The notes under the pieces: generated by a model | Database searches by the model: none | Told to the model about the DNA's origin: nothing | What the model saw: only the letters and a program-made list of their open reading frames with translations | Origin: Rhizophagus irregularis | Taxonomy: Eukaryota > Glomeromycota > Glomeromycetes > Glomerales > Glomeraceae | Reading direction: 5' to 3' | DNA: 64,000 bases | NCBI RefSeq assembly: GCF_026210795.1 | Contig: NC_089451.1 | Location: 1,534,001-1,598,000, forward strand | Shown here: piece by piece, positions 4,942-27,115 of the stretch | How the letters are laid out: each line of letters opens with the position of its first letter | Position numbering within the stretch: position 1 is the first letter of the stretch | Made by a program: the position numbers and the translations under genes

Positions 4942-6212
4942 ATTTGGAAAAAGTGGAAATACAATTATAGACAATTTTATTCTTGAAGCAAATTTACTAT
5001 GGATTCCTTATGATAAATTTAAGAATGTTGAATATCTTGATAAAGGAGGATTTGGTACTATATACAAGGCTATTTGGTTTTATAATAATAAAGATAATGA
5101 AGTAACCCTTAAACTTCATAATAATTTAAGTGAAAATTTGAATGAATTTTTGAATGAAGTATGATAATATATTATTTATTTTTTTTTTAATTTAACTTAT
5201 AATTTATTTATATTAATATATTATTATTATTTTATAGTGGAAATATCATAATAGTTGTTTATCATTAGATATTATCTATTTTTATGGGTTTACAAAAGAC
5301 CCAGATACTTTGAAATATATGGTGGTAATGAATTATGCAAACAAAGGTAATTTAAGAGGAAATTTAACAAGAATAGTCAAAAGTAAATGGTATCAAAAAT
5401 TATATATGTTATTTGAAACTATTTCTGGACTTAATAATATACATAGGCAAGAGCTTATTCATTGTGATATTCATGATGGTAATATTTTAAATCATGATGA
5501 AAGTAAAATTTATATTAGTGATTTAGGGTTATGTAAACCTGTAAAATCATTTTTGAAAAAATATGATATTTATGGTGTTATGCCATTTATGGCACCTGAA
5601 GTTTTAAGAGGCAATCCTTATACTCCAGCTAGTGATATATATAGTTTTTCTATGATTATGTGGGAATTTACATCTGGAACACCACCATTTAATAATAGAG
5701 CACATGATATTCAACTTACTTTAAGTATTTGTAAAGGTGAACGTCCTGAAATTATTGAAAATACTCCACAATGTTATGTAGAATTGATGAAAAAGTGTTG
5801 GGATGAAACCCCATTAAAAAGACCATCTTCTGAAGAAGTGTTAAATATTATTAAAGAATGGATATCCCTTCCATATGATATAAAAGTTGAAGATGTTAAT
5901 GAAAAATTAAAATACAATATTATGGAATTTGTAAATGCACCAATTGGGCATAACAATAATCTTGCTACTGAATCTCATTCACAGGCATATTATAAAAGTC
6001 GCTTAATTGATTTTACTAGTAAACAATTGAATGAAATTCTTGAAAATGTAGATTTACAAGCTTATTATTCAAGCCAATCTACTAGTGGAAAAGTGAACAA
6101 AATTCTTGAAAGTGAAGATTCACAAGCTAATGTAAAAATGAATGAAATGCTATTAAGTACTAGTGAAGATTTGGATGATTGTATAGTTAATTTGGATTCA
6201 TTAGGTACGTAA
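4942..6212 (+). CDS. 5'-truncated TKL-type protein kinase
   Basis: Exons are 4942-5158 and 5238-6212, with a GT..AG phase-0 intron at 5159-5237. The reading starts inside the family signature (SGNTIIDNFI, WIPYDKF) and covers the glycine loop DKGGFGTIYKAIW, the VAIK-type lysine in VTLKLHNN, a catalytic loop HCDIHDGN (HRD changed to HCD, Asp kept), DLG in place of DFG, and MAPEVL. It ends in a low-complexity tail with repeated LNEILE / VNKILE / MNEML segments. The Cys-rich N-terminus and NWT motif of its paralogues are missing, because satellite DNA abuts the first exon. A consensus donor gtaagt at 4870 follows an ATG at 4822, but its phase does not fit. The last codons read TTAG before GTACGT, so a further 3' exon is possible. 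Kinase class is confident; expression and completeness are not. The ATG at 5310 is internal to the domain. Confidence 0.75.
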
Positions 6213-9569: not shown

Positions 9570-12500
9570 CTAACTTAAGGTGTTAATTACTTTCGAATTA
9601 TTATCATTATAAAAGCCCATTTCTGCACTTTTAAAATCTCTATTTGAATCTAAAACAAAAAAAAATAAATCAATAAATAAAATAATATATTAATTTAGAT
9701 ATGGATAAAAAAACAATATTACTAATAATTCTTCAACAAATTGGATAAATTTAACCTTAATCAATATTCAATTAAGAAATATCAATTCGATAACATTCTA
9801 AAGATTCTATTTAATAAATAAAAAATTTATTAGTATCTTTAACAAATGATTTATATTTATTATTAATTAATACCTGAAAATTCCTTGCTTATTATATTAT
9901 CATTTTGTTCGTAATAATCATCAGAATTTTTTGGTTCAGGAAGATTATTGAAATTGAGTAACCTACTTTCATACGATAATCCTAAATTAGTTAAAGGTAT
10001 GGTGCTATTTGGTGAGTTGTTGTTAATATTATCTGCATCTTCAATTTGTGTTCGCAATACTACTGTTTGTTTATCACTTGGGTTACATAGCCATGTATAT
10101 AAAATATTATCAATTTCTTCTGTTTTTGGCCGTTTTGATGGATCGGAATCTAAGCATCTTTTAATTAATTGTACAATTAATTGAGGTACTTTAATATTAA
10201 ACCTTGGTCTAAGTCCTTTACAGATTTTTATTGCTAAAATTTCATCATGGCTAATGTTATCATATGGGCGTAATCCAGAAATTACTTCATACATAATTAT
10301 ACCAAAACTATAAATATCAGCAGCCTTGGTATAATTTTTTCCTCTTAAGATTTCAGGAGCTATGTAAGGTAAATTACCATAAATTGAATTTTCTGATGCA
10401 TCATAATTTGCAGGTTTGCATAATCCCATATCAGTTATAACTGTTTTATATTTAAGCTTTAATATATTACCAATATGCAAATCACGATGAAATAATTCCT
10501 TATTATGGATACATCTAAGTCCAAGCATAGCATCTTGTAAATAACCAATATTTTTGTCCCAATTTAATCTACTATAATGTTTATCCAAATAATCTCGTAA
10601 ACTTCCATCTTCTGCATAATCTAAAATCATCATATAATCTTTTGTCTTTGGGTCCTGAGTTATTCCATAAAATTCAATAATAAAATTATTGTTTATTTTT
10701 CCTTTATTATGTAACATAATCTATATGAAAGTAGGGTTACAAATATATTAGTAAAATTAACAATTTCAAATTTAAATATTTAAATAAATTAATAAAATTA
10801 ATATACCTCATTCATAAATTTTAAGGTAACATCTTTTGAATTATTTAAACTTTTTAGAGCTATAACCATATTTTTATTATTTCTTTCCCAATTTTGATAA
10901 TATTCATCCCATTTATCCATATACCCATCAATCCAATTTGCTTTATATATTTTGCCAAATCCTCCCTTTGTAATATATTTAATATCATACAATCTATCAT
11001 AAGATATCCATTCTAATGCTTTTTTAAATACTTCATAATTTTCATGAACTGATAACTGAGTATCTTGAATAAATTTATCAATATTATCATTATCACTAGT
11101 CCAATTTTCAAAATTTTGTTGAAAATGAATTGCATTACATATGTAATTACATTTTTTACATTTACCATATTTATCAATATATTTATAATACAAAACCTTC
11201 ATATAATTATTTGTTTCAGGATTTTGAGTTATTCCATAAAATTCATGATCTGTTTTAATCTAATAAATGTAGTACTATTAGTAAAATTAAGAATTTCAAA
11301 TTTTCATTAAATAATAAATTAATTATACCTCTTTCATAAATTCTAATGTAATATTTTTTGGATCATTTAATATTTTAAGTATCACAATCATATTATTACT
11401 ATTTCTTTTCCAATTTTGATTTTCGTCATCCCATTCATAAATACATCCATCAATCCAATTTGCTTTATAAGTTTCACCAAATCTGCTTTTTATAATGTTA
11501 TTAAATCTATCATATGGTATCCATTCTAATGCTGATTTAGCATTATTATGAGCTGATAACTGAGTTTCTTGAATAAATTTATCAATATTATCATTACCAC
11601 TAGTCCAATTTTCAAAATTTTGTTGAAAATGAATTGTATTACATATATAATTACATTTTTTACATCTATTATTCAGAACCATCATATAATTATTTGTTTC
11701 AGGATTTTGAGTTATTCCATAAGGTCCATTAATCTACAAGTATAATAACATATATTAGTAAAATTAAGAATTTCACATTTTCATTAAATAATAAATTAAT
11801 TATACCTCATTCATAAATTCTAATGTAATATTTTTTGGATCATTTAATATTTTAAGTATCACAATCATATTATTACTATTTCTTTTCCAATTTTGATTTT
11901 CATCATCCCATTCATAAATACATCCATCAATCCAATTTGCTCTATAAGTTTCACCAAATCTGCTTTTTATAGTGTTATTAAATCTATCATATGGTATCCA
12001 TTCTAATGCTGATTTAGCATTATTATGAGCTGATAACTGAGTTTCTTGAATAAATTTATCAACATTATCATTACCACTAGTCCAATTTTCAAAATTTTGT
12101 TGAAAATGAATTGTATTACATGTATAATTACATTTTTTACATTTATTATTCAGAACCATCATATAATTATTTGTTTCAGGATTTTGAGTTATTCCATAAT
12201 ATTTATGATCTGTTTTAATCTAATAAATATAGTATTAGTAAAATTAAGAATTTCAAATTTTAATTAAATAATAAATTAATTATACCTCATTCATAAATTC
12301 TAATGTAATATTTTTTGGATCATTTAATATTTTAAGTATCACAATCATATTATTACTATTTCTTTTCCAATTTTGATTTTCGTCATCCCATTCATAAATA
12401 CATCCATCAATCCAATTTGCTCTATAAGTTTCACCAAATCTGCTTTTTATAGTGTTATTAAATCTATCATAGGGTATCCATTCTAATGCTGATTTATTAT

Positions 12501-15500
12501 GAGCTGATAACTGAGTTTCTTGAATAAATTTATCAATATTATCATTACCACTAGTCCAATTTACAAAATTTTGTTGAAAATGAATTGTATTACATGTATA
12601 ATTACATTTTTTACATCTATTATTCAGAACCATCATATAATTATTTGTTTCAGGATTTTGAGTTATTCCATAAGGTCCATTAATCTACAAGTATAATAAC
12701 ATATATTAGTAAAATTAAGAATTTCACATTTTCATTAAATAATAAATTAATTATACCTCATTCATAAATTCTAATGTAATATTTTTTGGATCATTTAATA
12801 TTTTAAGTATCACAATCATATTATTACTATTTCTTTTCCAATTTTGATTTTCATCATCCCATTCATAAATACATCCATCAATCCAATTTGCTCTATAAGT
12901 TTCACCAAATCTGCTTTTTATAGTATTATTAAATTTATCATAGGATATCCATTCTAATGCTGATTTAGCATTATTATGAGCTGATAACTGAGTTTTTTGA
13001 ATAAATTTATCAATATTATAATTACCACTTGTCCAGGTTACAAAATTTTGTTGAAAATAAATTGTATTACATGTATAATTACATTTTTTACATCTATTAT
13101 TCAGAATCATCATGTAATTATTTGTTTCAGGATTTTGAGTTATTCCATAAAATTCATGATCTGTTTTAATCTAATAAATGTAGTACTATTAGTAAAATTA
13201 AGAATTTCAAATTTTCATTAAATAATAAATTAATTATACCTCTTTCATAAATTCTAATGTAATATTTTTTGGATTATTTAATTTTTTAAATATCACAATC
13301 ATATTATTACTATTTCTTTTCCAATTTTGATTTTCGTCATCCCATTCATAAATACATCCATCAATCCAATTTGCTCTATAAATTTCACCAAATCTGCTTT
13401 TTATAGTGTTATTAAATCTATCATAGGGTATCCATTCTAATGCTGATTTAGCATTATTATGAGCTGATAACTGAGTTTCTTGAATAAATTTATCAATATT
13501 ATAATTACCACTTGTCCAGGTTACAAAATTTTGTTGAAAATGAATTGTATTACATGTATAATTACATTTTTTACATCTATTATTCAGAACCATCATATAA
13601 TTATTTGTTTCAGGATTTTGAGTTATTCCATAAAATTTATGATCTGTTTTAATCTAATAAATATAGTATTAGTAAAATTAATAATTTCAAATTTTCATTA
13701 AATAATAAATTAATTATACCTCATTCATAAATTCTAATGTAACATTTTTTGGATCATTTAATATTTTAAGTATCACAGTCATATTATTACTATTTCTTTC
13801 CCAATTTTGATTTTCATCATCCCATTTATAAATACATCCATCAATCCAATTTGCTCTATATATTTCACCAAATCTGCTTTTTATAGTATTATTAAACTTA
13901 TCATAAGGTATCCATTCTAATGCCCTTTTATATACATCATAGTTACTAACATGAACTGATAGCTGAGTATCTTGAATAAATTTATCAATATAATCATTAC
14001 CACTAGTCCAATTTTCAAAATTTCGTTTAAAATGAATTGAATTACATGTATAATCACATATTTTACATTTATCATTCAAAACCAACATATAATTATCTGT
14101 TTCTGGATTTTGAGTTATTCCATAAAATTCGTGATCTGTTTTAATCTAATAAATATACTATATCAGTAAAATTAAAGATTTCAAATTTTCATTAAATAAT
14201 AAATTAATTATACCTCATTCATAAAATTTAATGTAACATTTTTTGGATCATCTAATATTTTAAGTATCACAATCATATTATTTCTATTTCTTTTCCAATT
14301 TTGATTTTCATCATCCCATTCATAAATACATCCATCAATCCAATTTGCTCTATATATTTCACTAAATCTGCTTTCTATAGTATTATTAAACATATTATAA
14401 GGTATCCATTCTAATGCCTTTTTATATACATCATATTTACTAATATGAACTGATAGCTGAGTATCTTGAATAAATTTATCAATATAATCATTACCACTAG
14501 TCCAATTTTTAAAATTTCGTTGAAAATGAATTGTATTACATGTATAATTACATTTTTTACATCTTTCATTCAAAACCAACATATAATTATTTGTTTCTGG
14601 ATTTTGAGTTATTCCATAAAATTCGTGATCTGTTTTAATCTTATAAATATACTATATCAGTAAAATTAAAGATTTCAAATTTTCATTAAATAATAAATTA
14701 ATCATACCTCATTCATAAATTTCAATGTAACATTTTTTGGATCATTTAATATTTTAAATATTACAATCATATTCTTATGATATCTTTTCCAATTTTGATT
14801 TTCATCATCCCATTTATAAATATACCCATCAATCCAATTTGTTCTATATATTTCACCAAATCTGCTTTTTATATTGTTATTAAATCTATCATAAGGTATC
14901 CATTCTAATGCCTTTTCATATACTTCATAGTTATCATGAACTGATAGCTGAGTATATTGAATAAATTTATCAATATAATTATTACCACTAGTCCAGCCTT
15001 CAAAATTTTGTTGAAAATGAATTGCACTACATATATAATTACATTTTTTACATTTATTACTCAAAACCATCATATAATTATTTGTTTTCGGATCTTGAGT
15101 TATTCCATAAGATCCATTAATCTACAAGAATAATAATATATTATTAAAATTAAGAATTTCAAATTTATATTAAATAATAAATTAATTATACCTCTTTCAT
15201 AAATTCTAATAGAATGTTTTTTGGATCATTTAATATTTTAAGTATCACAATCATATTATTTCTATTTCTTTTCCAATTTTGATTTTCATCATCCCATTTA
15301 TAAATATACCCATCAATCCAATTTGCTCTATATATTTTACTAAATCTGCTTTTTATAGTGTTATTAAATGTATCATAAGGTATCCATTCTAATGCCTTTT
15401 TATATACTTCATAGTTATCATGAACTGATAGCTGAGTATCTTGAATAAATTTATCAATATAATCATTACCACTAGTCCAGTCTTCAAAATTTTGTTGAAA

Positions 15501-16075
15501 ATGAATTGCACTACATGTATAATTACATTTTTTACATTTATCATTCAAAACCATCATATAATTATTTGTTTTCGGATCTTGAGTTATTCCATAAGGTCCA
15601 TTAATCTACAAGTATAATAACATATATTAGTAAAAGTAAGAATTTCAAATTTTCGTCAATAAATTAATTATACCTCTTTCATAAATCCTAATGTAATATT
15701 TTTTGAATCATTCAATATTTTTAGAATCACAACAGTATTGCCATTTCTTTTCCAATTTTGATTTTCGTCATCCCATTCATAAATACATCCATCAATCCAA
15801 TTTGCTCTATAAGTTTCACCAAATCTGCTTTTTATAGTAATATTAAATCTATTATAAGGTATCCATTCAAATGCTGATTTAGCATTATTATGAGCTGATA
15901 ACTGAGTTTCTTGAATAAATTTATCAATATTAACATTGCCACTAGTCCAATTTTCAAAATTTTGCTGAAATTTTATTGCGTTACATATATAATTACATCC
16001 TTCACATATTTTATTTAATTCGTTAACATGTGAAGGCTTAATTAAATTCTTGATGCCTTTGATAAACGAGTCCAT
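9570..16075 (-). CDS. Kinase with eleven tandem N-lobe exons and one C-lobe
   Basis: Minus-strand exons: 16075-15674, 15605-15192, 15121-14708, 14639-14214, 14145-13720, 13653-13240, 13170-12757, 12684-12286, 12219-11806, 11733-11329, 11259-10807 and 10720-9874, then a terminal exon at 9806-9772 or 9649-9570. Exons 1-11 are all divisible by three, all end at FM(N/K)E before a gtata or gtatga donor, and start phase 0 after a tag or aag acceptor. Joined, they read about 1,527 residues without a stop. Each repeat carries C-x2-C-x3-C, NFENWTSGN, ALEWIPYDRF, a glycine-loop remnant KSRFGETY, NWIDG and the lysine in VILK. Only exon 11 has an intact GGFGKIY loop. Exon 12 gives FYGITQDPKTKDYMM, HRDLHIGN, DMG and APEIL, a complete C-lobe. 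Repeats 2-11 begin with the exon-12-like YGITQNPETNNYMMVL and then switch to the Cys-rich start of exon 1, so they are chimeric duplicates. The product is predicted to be about 1,820 aa. Whether one transcript uses all exons, or they are alternatives, cannot be decided from sequence. The start ATG at 16075 opens MDSFIKGIKNLIKPS and lacks the chimeric start. Confidence 0.75.
10807..16075 (-). repeat. Tandem exon array, 11 units of 465-494 bp
   Basis: Distances between successive exon starts are 470, 484, 482, 494, 492, 483, 486, 465, 486 and 474 bp. Introns (about 62-80 nt) are conserved as well as exons. Two exon-start types occur: ING(P/S)YGITQ (exons 2, 3, 8, 10) and IKTDHEFYGITQ-like (exons 4, 5, 6, 7, 9, 11). 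The intron sequence around 11731-11790 recurs almost unchanged at 12682-12741, which indicates a recent two-unit (951 bp) duplication on top of older single-unit copies. Confidence 0.95.
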
Positions 16076-16339: not shown

Positions 16340-17220
16340 ATAGGTAAAGTTTTTCTTTGATAGAATTACTTGGGAAATTTTTATTAATAGAAAGATTTTT
16401 TTTTTGATAAAAATTTCGTTAGAGTTCGGCAGAGAATTTTTCTATTGATAGGGGAATTTCATTTAATAAAGGAGTTTTTTTTTTTGATGGATAATTTTAT
16501 TGGAAAATTTTTTTAAATAGGAGAGATTTTTTTTTTTTGATAGAGAATTTCGTTATAGAATTTTGAGTTTTTTTTTTCTCGTTGAGAATTTTTTTTTATA
16601 GAAAATTCATTTGAGAATTTTTTAATGGGGAGGATTTTTTTCTTGATTGAAAAAAATCTTTTTAGCAGGGGAGATTTTTTTTTTTTTGATAGATAATTTC
16701 GTTAGTAAATTTTTTAAACAGGGGAGATTTTTTTTTTTTGAAGAATTTCGGTAAAGGATATTTTTTAATAGGAGGGAAGTTTTTTTGATATAGAAATTCT
16801 TTTAAGAATTTTTTTTATTGGATAAGAATCCTTTTTGATTTTTTTTTTTGATTTTTTGATGGAAGATTTTCGTTAGAAATTTTTTCCTTTAATAAGGAAT
16901 ATTTTATTTGATTGAGAATTTCATTTGATAATTTTTCTTTAATAAGGGAGTTTTTTGATAATTTTGTTGGTTGATAAATTTTTTTATATGTAAGTCTTTT
17001 TTTGATGAAGTATTTCATTTTAGAAGTCATTTAATAGAAAATTTTATTGAAAATGATTTTTTTAATAAGGGTATCGAGAATTTTAGCTTGAAGTTTTTTT
17101 TTTTTTAAATAAAGAATTTCGTTAGAAATCCTTTATTTTCACGAAAAATTTATTGGAATATTTATTGGAAAAGTTTTTGCAATTATTCTTTTTTTAATGA
17201 ATATTATAAAATAAATGGTT
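16340..17220. repeat. T-rich minisatellite
   Basis: Degenerate units of roughly 50-60 bp alternate the blocks gagaatttcgttagaaattt, tttaataggggagatttttt and a poly-T run followed by gat. There are about 16 copies, with strong T bias on the plus strand. No gene is seen. Confidence 0.85.
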
Positions 17221-17337: not shown

Positions 17338-17602
17338 CCCTATAAAAAAAGAATGTCCGGAAATTGTAGCTAAAAACGTCCGGAAAATGTTTATTTGTCT
17401 GGAATATGTCCGGAATATTGCAATATTCCGGACGTTGGAAAATTTCCATTTTCCAGAAAATGTCCAGAAAATGTCTAGGAGGGTTCAGACCCAGCGTCCA
17501 GAAAGTGTCCGGAATATTGCAATTTTCTGGACGTTTTCCGGACACACTGACATTTTCCGGATGTTTTTAGCTACAATTTCCGGACATTTTTTTTTTACAG
17601 GG
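17338..17602. mobile_element. MITE with 52-bp terminal inverted repeats
   Basis: The left end begins ccctataaaaaaagaatgtc and continues with cggaaattgtagctaaaaac. The right end, reverse complemented, begins ccctgtaaaaaaaaaatgtc and continues identically for about 52 bp with a few mismatches. TAT directly flanks both sides (17335-17337 and 17603-17605), a candidate 3-bp target duplication. The interior is full of tccgga and tccaga words and contains a perfect 26-bp palindrome at 17408-17433 centred on ttgcaa. There is no transposase, and the superfamily is not assigned. Short reading frames here are only the palindrome read in two directions. Confidence 0.85.
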
Positions 17603-18728
17603 TATTAATTTTATTCTTAGTATATGGTTTCGGACTTTTTTAATTTTTAATCAGGAATATTTTTTTTATATTTATAGAATATATGATTTCGGTGCAAATT
17701 TATTTATGCCAACCATTAGCAATTTGGCTGATTGCAAATATATTATTTACCAATAATTAATTGTTTGGTCTTATTATCAGTAATTTTGCTCAATTATTTT
17801 TCAATGTACAAATTATAGTTGTGACTTTTCCCTGTTGAATTTAATTATAGGAATGATTAAATTTAAAATATTATAGGTGAATTGAAATATTTGAATTCTT
17901 TATCACAAGGAATGTAGAAAATACATGATTGATCTATTTTAAAATATTGTCATTTTATACTAAGAAATAACTAGTGTGATATAAACTTTTCAACCATAAC
18001 ATAATTTGTTCAACTTTTTTCTCTGCTTTAAATCAAAAATCAAAAAATAATATACAATTATTTAAATTTACTATTATCAATTTACATAAACTGATACGTT
18101 AACCGCATTGTAATATTTAGTATTAATTGAAAGAAATTTCTGAGGGTTAAAAAGTGAAATTTTAGAAAAATATTATTGAAAAAATGGTAAATTAGAATAA
18201 ATTCTATTTTTTCACATTAGTATTCGGTTTTATAAATAATATAGAAGTCATGATAAAATAATTAATAACTTAATATTTTGCGTATTTTTGCAGAATTTTC
18301 AATATCAGGTGTCAATTATGCGTACTACTCATATAAAAAGTCTCTGCGTACAGCTCATAGTAAAAAAAATTTTCGCCACCTGACCCTTATATATATATCT
18401 CTGGGTCCTATCTGAATAATATGTTGATTTAAATATGTAACATATTACGAAATCACACGACGCTAAAATTTACTACGCTTCAATAAAACATGGCGAAATA
18501 CCTAGTCATTTTTCCTATTATCACTTAATAAATTAATACTTAATAAATATTAATTTTAAACAGTTTAGTCTCGTCATAGAAAAAATTGCAATTCAATTGA
18601 TTATAAAAAGCTGACGTTGGATGGATTGGCATGATACCGAATTCGGAGCTTCGGCCGAATAATGTTTATTTTGGTCATTAATTTCACGTGATATATGTGA
18701 ATGTCATGTGCCAATGAGAAACAGCTGT
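17603..18728. other. Gene-free stretch
   Basis: AT-rich intergenic DNA. I recognise no domain, RNA gene or clear repeat. Confidence 0.45.
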
Positions 18729-25542: not shown

Positions 25543-27115
25543 TTAAAAATTACCATCTTTGTTAAATTTCAATTGAGAAATATCAATTTGTTGAGATTCT
25601 ATTTATAAAATAAAATTTATTTAGTATAATTATTAAACGTTCATGAATATATATAAACCTGATCATTAAATATATACCTAAATATTCCATAGATACTATA
25701 TTATCGTAATGTTCATAATAATCATCTGAATTTTTTGGTTCAGGAAGATTTTCAAAATCAAGTAATCTACTTGTATAAATAGCTTCTGAATGTGTTTTAT
25801 ATGATAATTCTAAACTAGTTGAGGGTATTCTATTAGTTGATAATTTCTTATTGATTTCATCAGCTTCTCTAATTTGATCTTGTAATTCCGTTTGATTATT
25901 AAACCCAACCCACCATTGCATTAAAATTTTTTTAATTTCCGTTGCTGTTGGTCGATTTAATGGATTTGCATCTAAACATCTTTTAATTAAATGGACGATA
26001 AGTTGAGGCACTTTAATATTAAACTTTGGTCTATATCCTTGACAAATTTTTATTGCTAAGTTATTATCATGGCTTAGATCATGATATGGAGGTAATCCAG
26101 AAATCATTTCGTACATAATTATACCAAAACTATAAATATCGGAAGCTTCAGTATAATTATGTCCTCTTAAAATTTCAGGAGCTATATAAGATAAAACACC
26201 ATATACTTTTTCTTTTGTAATTTCTGACGCATTGTAATTTGCAAGTATACATAATCCCATATCGGTTATATAAATATCTCTAATAAAACTATCCGTAAGA
26301 AGTATATTTCCAACATGCAAATCTCGATGAATTATTTTATTATCATGAATATGATCAATTCCAAATGCAATTTTACATAGGTAATGGATCTTATCATACC
26401 AACTTAATTTATTATAATATTTATCTAAATAATTCCGTAAACTTCCCTTTTCCGCATAATCTAAGACCATCATATAATCTTTTGTTTCTGGATCTTGAGT
26501 TATTCCATAAAGATTAATAACACCAGCACCAATAGTATTAAGAGTTAGTTTGTGATGTGATACAATCTACATTTATCGAAATCAAATATATTAGTCGAAA
26601 TAAAAATTCTGTATATTAACCGAAAATCAAATTTATACCTCACTCATAAATTCCAATGAAAACTTTTTTGAGTTATTTAACTTTTTAAGAGCCACATCTT
26701 TATTATTTTTTCTTATCCAATTGTTATGTTTTTTACTCCATTTGTCTATAGGTCCATCAATCCAATTTGCTTTATACACTTTACCAAACCCACCTTTTGC
26801 AATATATTTAATATTATGAAATCTGTCATATGGTATCCATTCTAATGCTTTCTTCGTTTCATAATGATCTGATAACTGAGAATCTTGAATAATTTTGTCA
26901 ATATCATTATTTCCACTAGTCCAATTCTTAAAATTTTGTTGGAACCGTTTTGCAATGCAAATTTCATTGCATTCTTTACATATTAATTCGTCAATATCAA
27001 CTGATGAAGTGATTGATCTTTCTTTATACATTGAAGATTTGTTTAAAAGATTTAAAATTAGAATAAATGTGAAAGTGAAATAATGTTTGATGCGGGATAA
27101 ATACGACAAAGTCAA
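25543..27115 (-). CDS. TKL-type protein kinase, apparently intact
   Basis: Exons 27115-26639, 26566-25678 and 25598-25543 join in phase (0, then 1) through GT..AG introns of 72 and 79 nt, giving about 473 aa. The N-terminus may start at the first Met or at MYKERSITSS. C-x2-C-x3-C (CKECNEIC) is followed by NWTSGN, ALEWIPYDRF, an intact glycine loop KGGFGKVYKANW and VALKKLNN. Exon 2 continues LYGITQDPETKDYMMVLDY, then the HRDLHVGN catalytic loop, DMG (DFG variant), IAPEIL, DIYSFGIIMYE and the distal RCLDANPLNRPT motif. The last exon encodes ESQQIDISQLKFNKDGNF. All catalytic residues are present, so it is probably active. It is the template by which the tandem-exon locus and the pseudogenes were parsed. 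Confidence 0.9.

What the first reader, a model, noticed from the sequence alone, without database searches (positions are those of the whole stretch)
9570..16075. One kinase locus with eleven tandem, in-phase N-lobe exons
Eleven consecutive exons encode the same N-terminal kinase segment, every one is open, every intron is phase 0, and only the last has an intact glycine loop before a single complete C-lobe. Translating through gives about 1,820 residues without a stop. That is improbable for decaying duplicates, given the stop-rich relics of the same family elsewhere in the window. Two readings are attractive: a giant scaffold of repeated pseudo-N-lobes, or mutually exclusive exon cassettes, since any exon can splice in phase to the C-lobe exon.
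Basis: partly seen in the sequence, partly recalled or inferred. Interest (0 to 1): 0.9.

Follow-up and report, generated by a model that had tools for sequence, protein, structure and literature searches.

The report
Kinases with tandem ATP-dead half-kinase modules
A gene of the root-symbiotic fungus Rhizophagus irregularis appears to encode one large signalling enzyme in which ten copies of half a kinase, each stripped of residues that hold ATP, precede a single copy that keeps them; the same layout recurs in many related genes and suggests a little-described kind of protein repeat.

Summary
On the minus strand (16075-9772), 13 exons read through as 1,820 residues. Exons 1-11 repeat one module: CxxC-x3-C, helical cap, kinase N-lobe. 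Exon 12 holds the only C-lobe. The real repeat is shifted: exons 2-11 begin with beta4-beta5 of the previous N-lobe, so each N-lobe spans an intron.

The exons look selected to stay coding. In 20 arrays of the same genome 105 of 114 exons are 3n long while intron lengths vary; dN/dS is about 0.6-0.7 against 1.03-1.22 in neutral simulation.

A rule emerged: the copy next to the C-lobe keeps the glycine loop (18 of 19; upstream 4 of 126) and the VAIK alanine (19 of 19; upstream 0 of 126, 3 unreadable). Four arrays fetched later obey it. In 128 annotated multi-module proteins the loop is intact in 121 last and 6 of 729 upstream modules. AlphaFold folds an upstream module as a full N-lobe.

This favours one long pseudo-N-lobe-array kinase over interchangeable catalytic cassettes. 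A close relative has 4 modules, not 11. Transcripts could not be examined; the array's function is inferred.

The parts
15674..16075 (-). exon 1 (N-terminal cap copy; ATG; CxxC, helical cap, beta1-alphaC; loop SRFGE, VVILK)
   Evidence: groups with first exons of five other stretches in the tree, 92/99
15192..15605 (-). exon 2, pseudo-N-lobe module (starts with beta4-beta5)
14708..15121 (-). exon 3, pseudo-N-lobe module
14214..14639 (-). exon 4, pseudo-N-lobe module
13720..14145 (-). exon 5, pseudo-N-lobe module
13240..13653 (-). exon 6, pseudo-N-lobe module
12757..13170 (-). exon 7, pseudo-N-lobe module
12286..12684 (-). exon 8, pseudo-N-lobe module
11806..12219 (-). exon 9, pseudo-N-lobe module
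11329..11733 (-). exon 10, pseudo-N-lobe module
10807..11259 (-). exon 11, the only N-lobe with the ATP-binding motifs (ITKGGFGKIYKA, VIALK)
   Evidence: groups with last exons of eight other stretches, 88/85
9874..10720 (-). exon 12, rest of alphaC, beta4-5, complete C-lobe (HRDLHIGN, DMG) and tail
   Evidence: 94.3% identical to P0241 over 283 aa
9772..9806 (-). exon 13, end of the protein (ESLECYRIDIS; first codon shared with exon 12) and stop
   Evidence: resembles the C-terminus of P0241
10743..15998 (.). tandem DNA array, unit about 494 bp: one intron plus parts of both flanking exons

Best explanation
It is one 13-exon gene for a roughly 1,820-residue kinase. Ten upstream modules are pseudo-N-lobes: they keep the Cys motif, the helical cap, the predicted N-lobe fold and the beta3 lysine, but have lost the glycine loop and the VAIK alanine. 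Exon 11 plus exon 12 make the one kinase domain with the ATP-binding residues. Shown from sequence: open frames, splice-consistent junctions, constraint, and the last-only rule in many arrays and in several species. Inferred: the exons are spliced constitutively in series; the array lengthens and shortens by unequal crossing-over of the 0.49-kb unit; it serves as a non-catalytic platform, through N-lobe and helical-cap contacts, that binds partners or inputs and regulates or clusters the C-terminal kinase. Upstream copies are disarmed, perhaps because one catalytic centre per chain is required.
For: 11 of 11 window N-lobe exons 3n and open, 1,820-aa read-through. In 20 arrays (21 rows; L021 and L022 are two parts of one), 114 exons with both junctions auto-called: 105 are 3n; 143 introns mod 3 = 59/39/45. 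Loop intact: last 18/19, upstream 4/126; Ala: last 19/19, upstream 0/126 with 3 unreadable; beta3 Lys 19/19 and 115/126 (a recount on aligned columns). In a column scan, the only positions held by at least 15 of 16 last copies but with another majority residue in 89 internal ones are G99, G100, K103 (loop), A134 (VAIK) and S141; 42 others are at least 90% conserved in internal copies with the same majority residue in last ones, among them C34, C37, C41, W53 and beta3 K136. Later-fetched arrays: last 4/4, upstream loop 0/53 rows, Ala 1/52 readable. Annotated proteins: 128 of 140 counted; loop intact last 121/128, upstream 6/729; beta3 Lys 128/128 and 627/729; Ala last 126/128. Same-array dN/dS 0.59, nearest pairs 0.69 (0.64-0.77), below 1 in 15 of 15 arrays, two of them on one pair each; neutral 1.03-1.22. 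AF2: an upstream module folds as a five-stranded N-lobe with short alphaC.
Against: No transcript was seen; gene models may simply chain open exons. dN/dS is only mildly below 1, and exons 2-5 of the window give 1.19. Exceptions: L023's last copy has VRFG; one L019 first copy (GGFGET) and three L027 internal copies have GGFG-like loops, though without the Ala; P0034 has an upstream module with both GGFG and Ala; in the wider protein set Ala is kept in 164 of 729 upstream modules, so there only the loop rule holds. Twelve of 140 proteins were dropped because the last matched module lay over 25 residues from the C-lobe. The 128 proteins are not independent: one search found 10 pairs among those retrieved with C-lobe regions over 96% identical. 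The fetched stretches were picked for being rich in hits. The DxG motif reads DMG, so activity is not certain. The platform function has no direct evidence; the four-module model has pTM 0.49.
Confidence: 0.72

Rival explanations
1. Mutually exclusive or skipped exon cassettes: one N-lobe exon at a time is spliced to exon 12, giving alternative kinases or dead-kinase isoforms from one locus.
For: Exons 2-11 are symmetric (3n, phase 0 on both sides) and exon 1 ends in phase 0, so any of them joins exon 12 in frame; exon 12 supplies the rest of alphaC and beta4-5 for any of them.
Against: Upstream copies nearly always lack the glycine loop (4 of 126 intact; 0 of 53 rows) and the VAIK Ala (0 of 123 readable; 1 of 52 readable), so most isoforms would be dead. 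Internal exons carry a beta4-beta5 hairpin that is redundant if they are joined directly to exon 12, yet it is the most constrained segment measured (dN/dS 0.23). Introns are very short. Annotated gene models join modules in series, for example P0242 for L025.
Confidence: 0.1
2. Decaying tandem duplicates: the array is a by-product of replication slippage and is not translated as such.
For: Tandem DNA repeat with 89% matches; some arrays are broken (L030, pieces in L023, L034); dN/dS not far below 1.
Against: Neutral simulation leaves 0.7-2.2% of exons open at pS 0.085-0.09, against 105 of 114 in frame; constraint is uneven (beta4-5 0.23, CxxC-helix 0.36, beta2-beta3 insert 0.93); the columns that change are mainly those of the ATP site.
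Confidence: 0.06
3. Recognition array: the pseudo-N-lobes are a fast-evolving repeat surface for self/non-self or host sensing, with copy number and sequence under diversifying selection, like the internally conserved repeats of fungal and plant immune receptors (comparison recalled).
For: Internal copies mostly group by locus; module number differs between close relatives (11 v 4; 9 v 8 in P0069 v P0062); relaxed segments (beta2-beta3 insert 0.93, linker 0.77).
Against: No site-wise positive selection was tested; no partner known.
Confidence: 0.25

Closest known systems
Pseudokinase-kinase tandem proteins (JAK family; plant tandem kinase proteins)
   Same: Catalytically defective kinase unit(s) N-terminal to a kinase domain in one chain; a JAK structure is the first PDB match of both models, with low TM-scores to the whole model (0.40 and 0.17).
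   Different: Known ones have one complete two-lobed pseudokinase domain (recalled); here only N-lobes repeat, from 1 to about 18 upstream in the proteins seen, in the window each mainly on its own exon.
Expanded PF07714 kinase family of R. irregularis (2,533 kinases in PMC10234402; [quoted passage not shown]
   Same: Same organism and family; the passages read describe gene-family expansion and tandem gene copies.
   Different: In the passages read, no repeats of an N-lobe exon inside one gene and no last-only rule.
Exon-duplication repeat proteins (symmetric phase-0 exons)
   Same: In-phase exon repeats that extend a protein (recalled general knowledge).
   Different: The repeat is cut from the middle of an enzyme domain, and the domain boundary straddles the intron.

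Membership tests
Eukaryotic protein kinase (TK/TKL-like, PF07714) | Complete C-lobe with HRD and DxG | tested here: met
   Exon 12, PF07714 1.7e-36; HRDLHIGN and DMG in the translation
Eukaryotic protein kinase (TK/TKL-like, PF07714) | Glycine loop and VAIK lysine in the N-lobe next to the C-lobe | tested here: met
   Exon 11 GGFG and VIALK
Pseudokinase-kinase tandem protein (JAK/TKP kind) | Upstream unit is a complete two-lobed kinase fold | tested here: not met
   No C-lobe match between modules in the 20 arrays; C-lobe matches only after the last module
Pseudokinase-kinase tandem protein (JAK/TKP kind) | Upstream unit lacks ATP-binding motifs while the last keeps them | tested here: met
   with the exceptions named there
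Mutually exclusive exon cassette gene | Alternative exons are each functionally competent | tested here: not met
   Loop 4/126 and Ala 0/126 (3 unreadable) in upstream copies; judged from motifs, not by assay
Mutually exclusive exon cassette gene | One alternative exon per transcript | not testable with these tools
   No RNA reads available
In-frame exon-repeat protein | Repeated symmetric exons under coding constraint | tested here: met

The most novel reading that the evidence does not exclude
Glomeromycotina use the kinase N-lobe, freed from its C-lobe, as a tandem-repeat building block: long chains of ATP-dead N-lobes with one live kinase at the end. Arrays were born more than once (six of six internal copies in L027, and two of three in L038, group with their own last copy) and each time were disarmed at the ATP site, pointing to selection for exactly one catalytic centre per chain; array length would act as an evolvable recognition or assembly ruler.
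Probability: 0.4. Interest if true: 0.9.

Novelty: new variant of a known kind. Interest (0 to 1): 0.75.

Why it matters
The huge kinase expansion of arbuscular mycorrhizal fungi is a standing puzzle. A positional rule (the last N-lobe keeps its ATP site, the others do not) turns part of it into a testable class: large pseudo-N-lobe-array kinases. It also offers a natural series for asking what an N-lobe does without catalysis, and for watching exon arrays grow and shrink. Domain searches would tend to miss it: with Pfam-A at E up to 1, two of the three N-lobe exons tested gave no match and the third gave only matches below the families' cut-offs.

Tried and rejected
Intronless retrocopies, which would show the spliced order, were sought with a junction-spanning query; the two listed matches covering the whole query contain five stops each, as expected from reading through an intron, so none was found among the matches listed. 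Comparison of R. clarus proteins with identical C-termini but different lengths (P0001/P0003, P0006/P0026, P0008/P0031, P0052/P0117) showed segments missing inside modules; I could not tell RNA-backed splicing from differences between gene models and drew nothing from it. The 'b1-b2 (loop)' row is invalid (column range 121 wide by a string-index slip) and is not used. One search counted 3 of 126 upstream loops with a narrow pattern that missed GGFGET in L019 and left 7 Ala positions unread; one search recounts on aligned columns (4 of 126; 3 unread) and is the one used. In one search part of the 9 non-3n exons look like wrong automatic boundaries (by eye); they are left in the count. Kwon et al. 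2019 on pseudokinases is not held (the id was recalled and differs by one from that paper's); I saw it only as a citation. A term search inside PMC7586955 for fungi, fungal, N-lobe only and truncated found nothing. Paper searches: (listings and abstract starts only); none of the titles or abstract starts listed concerns repeated N-lobe exons, but most subscription papers and the bioRxiv library are not held.

The organism: two R. irregularis DAOM 181602/197198 proteins, P0185 and P0215, match fetched stretches at 98% or more over 361 and 314 residues; C12 of the assembly and a contig of R. irregularis protein OCT59_003761 have the same length, 5,132,999; a legend in PMC10234402 speaks of chromosomes 9-32, matching 32 contigs. 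That the OCT59 tag belongs to that assembly is recalled.

Full report
What is there. The window lies on contig 23 of a 146.7-Mb, 32-contig assembly. Matches of 98% or more to R. irregularis proteins in two fetched stretches and the protein hits place it in Rhizophagus irregularis, an arbuscular mycorrhizal fungus. On the minus strand, from an ATG at 16075, eleven exons of 399-453 nt, all multiples of three and all open, are separated by introns of 66-72 nt (the one before exon 12 is 86 nt) and followed by a C-lobe exon and a short last exon. The spliced frame is 5,463 nt, 1,820 residues, one terminal stop. TRF sees a 494-bp unit, 10.8 copies.

The repeat is shifted relative to the fold. Exons 2-11 begin with YGITQ..YMMVL, the beta4-beta5 hairpin that exon 12 carries just before its C-lobe, and then jump to the CxxC motif that opens exon 1's module. 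The duplicated DNA therefore runs from the hinge of one copy to the hinge of the next and contains one whole intron. Each N-lobe is completed by the start of the next exon. AlphaFold on P0128, an R. irregularis protein with one upstream module, gives mean pLDDT 79 and folds that module as beta1-beta2-beta3-short alphaC-beta4-beta5 (residues 70-151), then the kinase. A four-module fragment, P0155, shows the main elements in each module as far as the sequence runs, with uncertain packing (pLDDT 73, pTM 0.49). The PDB matches listed are kinases, a JAK first in both lists.

It is not one locus. A query with exon 11 gave 4,537 first-look candidates, of which 150 were scored; of the 150 matches listed, one is marked with a stop inside, but these are the best-scoring ones. 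A junction query gave 278 matches; 140 of the listed places group into 59 clusters on 16 contigs. I fetched 20 stretches of 10 kb. With the window they hold 20 arrays, all with a C-lobe match after the last module; one search lists 21 rows because the array of L021 runs on into L022. The stretches were chosen because they were rich in hits, not at random.

Selection. Of 114 exons whose two junctions were called automatically, 105 are 3n in length, with 18 different 3n lengths; 4 of 114 contain in-frame stops. The 143 introns fall 59/39/45 by length mod 3. Nei-Gojobori dN/dS among internal copies of the same array is 0.59 (278 pairs with pS 0.01-0.4), nearest pairs 0.69 (60 pairs; bootstrap over 15 arrays 0.64-0.77), last copies 0.46 (120 pairs); it is below 1 in 15 of 15 arrays, of which L022 and L037 rest on one pair each. 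By segment (278 pairs) beta4-5 is 0.23 and CxxC-helix 0.36, while the beta2-beta3 insert is 0.93. In the window alone the mean over 55 pairs is 0.61, but exons 2-5 give 1.19. Neutral simulation at intron composition gives 1.03-1.22; at pS 0.085-0.09 it leaves 0.7-2.2% of exons open. So these exons look translated and constrained, though loosely.

The last-only rule. I classed copies as first, internal or last (adjacent to the C-lobe), leaving out 19 fragments and 2 single units. On aligned columns: loop intact in 18 of 19 last copies and 4 of 126 first or internal ones (the first copy of L019 and three internal copies of L027); alanine of VAIK in 19 of 19 last and 0 of 126 others (3 unreadable); beta3 lysine in 19 of 19 and 115 of 126. 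The last copy without an intact loop is L023's (VRFG). A column scan of 89 internal and 16 last copies shows that the positions held by at least 15 of 16 last copies and with another majority in internal ones are two glycines and a lysine of the loop, the VAIK alanine and one serine; 42 other positions are at least 90% conserved in internal copies and have the same majority residue in last copies, including three cysteines, W53 and the beta3 lysine. Four arrays fetched afterwards gave last 4 of 4; upstream 0 of 53 rows with an intact loop and 1 of 52 readable with Ala. Among 240 retrieved proteins, 140 have a C-lobe and at least two readable modules; 12 were dropped because the last matched module did not abut the C-lobe. 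In the other 128 the loop is intact in 121 last and 6 of 729 upstream modules; the beta3 lysine is kept in 128 of 128 and 627 of 729. Ala is present in 126 of 128 last modules, but also in 164 of 729 upstream ones; in the 25 listed proteins with two or more Ala modules the loop is mostly replaced by residues such as NGLI, NSFM or DDSN. These proteins are not independent: one search found 10 pairs whose C-lobe regions are over 96% identical. The proteins retrieved bear the names of R. irregularis, R. clarus, R. diaphanus, Glomus cerebriforme, Acaulospora and Diversispora.

History. In a tree of 147 modules, nine last copies from nine stretches, including the window's, group together (88/85); six first copies group (92/99); internal copies mostly group by locus. 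That is a cap-internal-cap pattern with locus-specific expansion. In L027 six of six internal copies, and in L038 two of three, group with their own last copy (100/99 and 93/97), so arrays seem to have arisen more than once and been disarmed each time. Only 142 columns support this tree and 59 of 144 inner branches are open.

A close relative of the window gene. P0241 (854 aa, R. irregularis, 27.7-kb contig) matches exon 1 at 91%, exon 2 at 85%, exon 11 at 88% and exon 12 at 94%, and ends SESLECCRIDIS, supporting exon 13. It has four modules instead of eleven, and only its last has GGFG and the alanine (sequence). It may be the orthologue in another isolate or a near paralogue, and its contig may have collapsed repeats. 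The sequence of P0242, 99-100% identical to the first two modules of L025, joins modules in series at the kind of junction that I inferred. P0062 and P0069 (98.8% identical in the C-lobe region) differ by one module-sized block of 147 residues and by smaller gaps. None of the 292 proteins retrieved matches the window locus at 95% or more over 50 residues, so I saw no gene model of the locus itself.

How it probably works. The simplest reading is a chain: ten ATP-dead N-lobes, each with a helical cap, then one kinase with the ATP-binding residues. Short introns and symmetric exons fit constitutive splicing in series. The cassette idea predicts competent alternatives; what is seen is the opposite. 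The role of the array, a docking, clustering or recognition platform acting on the terminal kinase, is inference from the retained fold, the lost ATP site and the differences in module number.

Known context. PMC10234402 reports 2,533 kinases and Nanopore-refined gene models (passages); PMC6123716 reports PF07714 as the most frequent motif of inflated genes (passages); PMC8647823 speaks of tandem arrays of duplicate genes and of high-copy signalling genes, kinases among them, lying next to Mutator-like elements (passages). Nothing in the passages or listings seen describes tandem N-lobe exons within a gene.

Noticed in passing
window 25673-26998, minus strand: A kinase of the same family with a single intact N-lobe exon (YIAKGGFGKV, VALK) followed by a C-lobe: the one-module form of the architecture.
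   Followed up: partly
window 5271-6017, plus strand: A C-lobe match without an N-lobe module match beside it; possibly a relic.
   Followed up: no
window 16654-16959: T-rich imperfect repeats of about 51 bp 5' of the gene.
   Followed up: no
window 17338-17603; L025 7195-7489: A TCCGGA-type repeat; a related, self-complementary copy (68-87% identical in pieces; 90% inverted match to itself) lies between the two C-lobe pieces of L025.
   Followed up: partly
window 10807-15605: Two types of exon start, ING..YGITQ and IKTDH..YGITQ, each with its own intron 3' end, occur interspersed along the array, suggesting that duplication units may have held more than one module.
   Followed up: no
L030, L023 and L034: Arrays with modules split into pieces, as by frameshifts or stops, beside otherwise whole ones: examples of decay in the same family.
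   Followed up: partly
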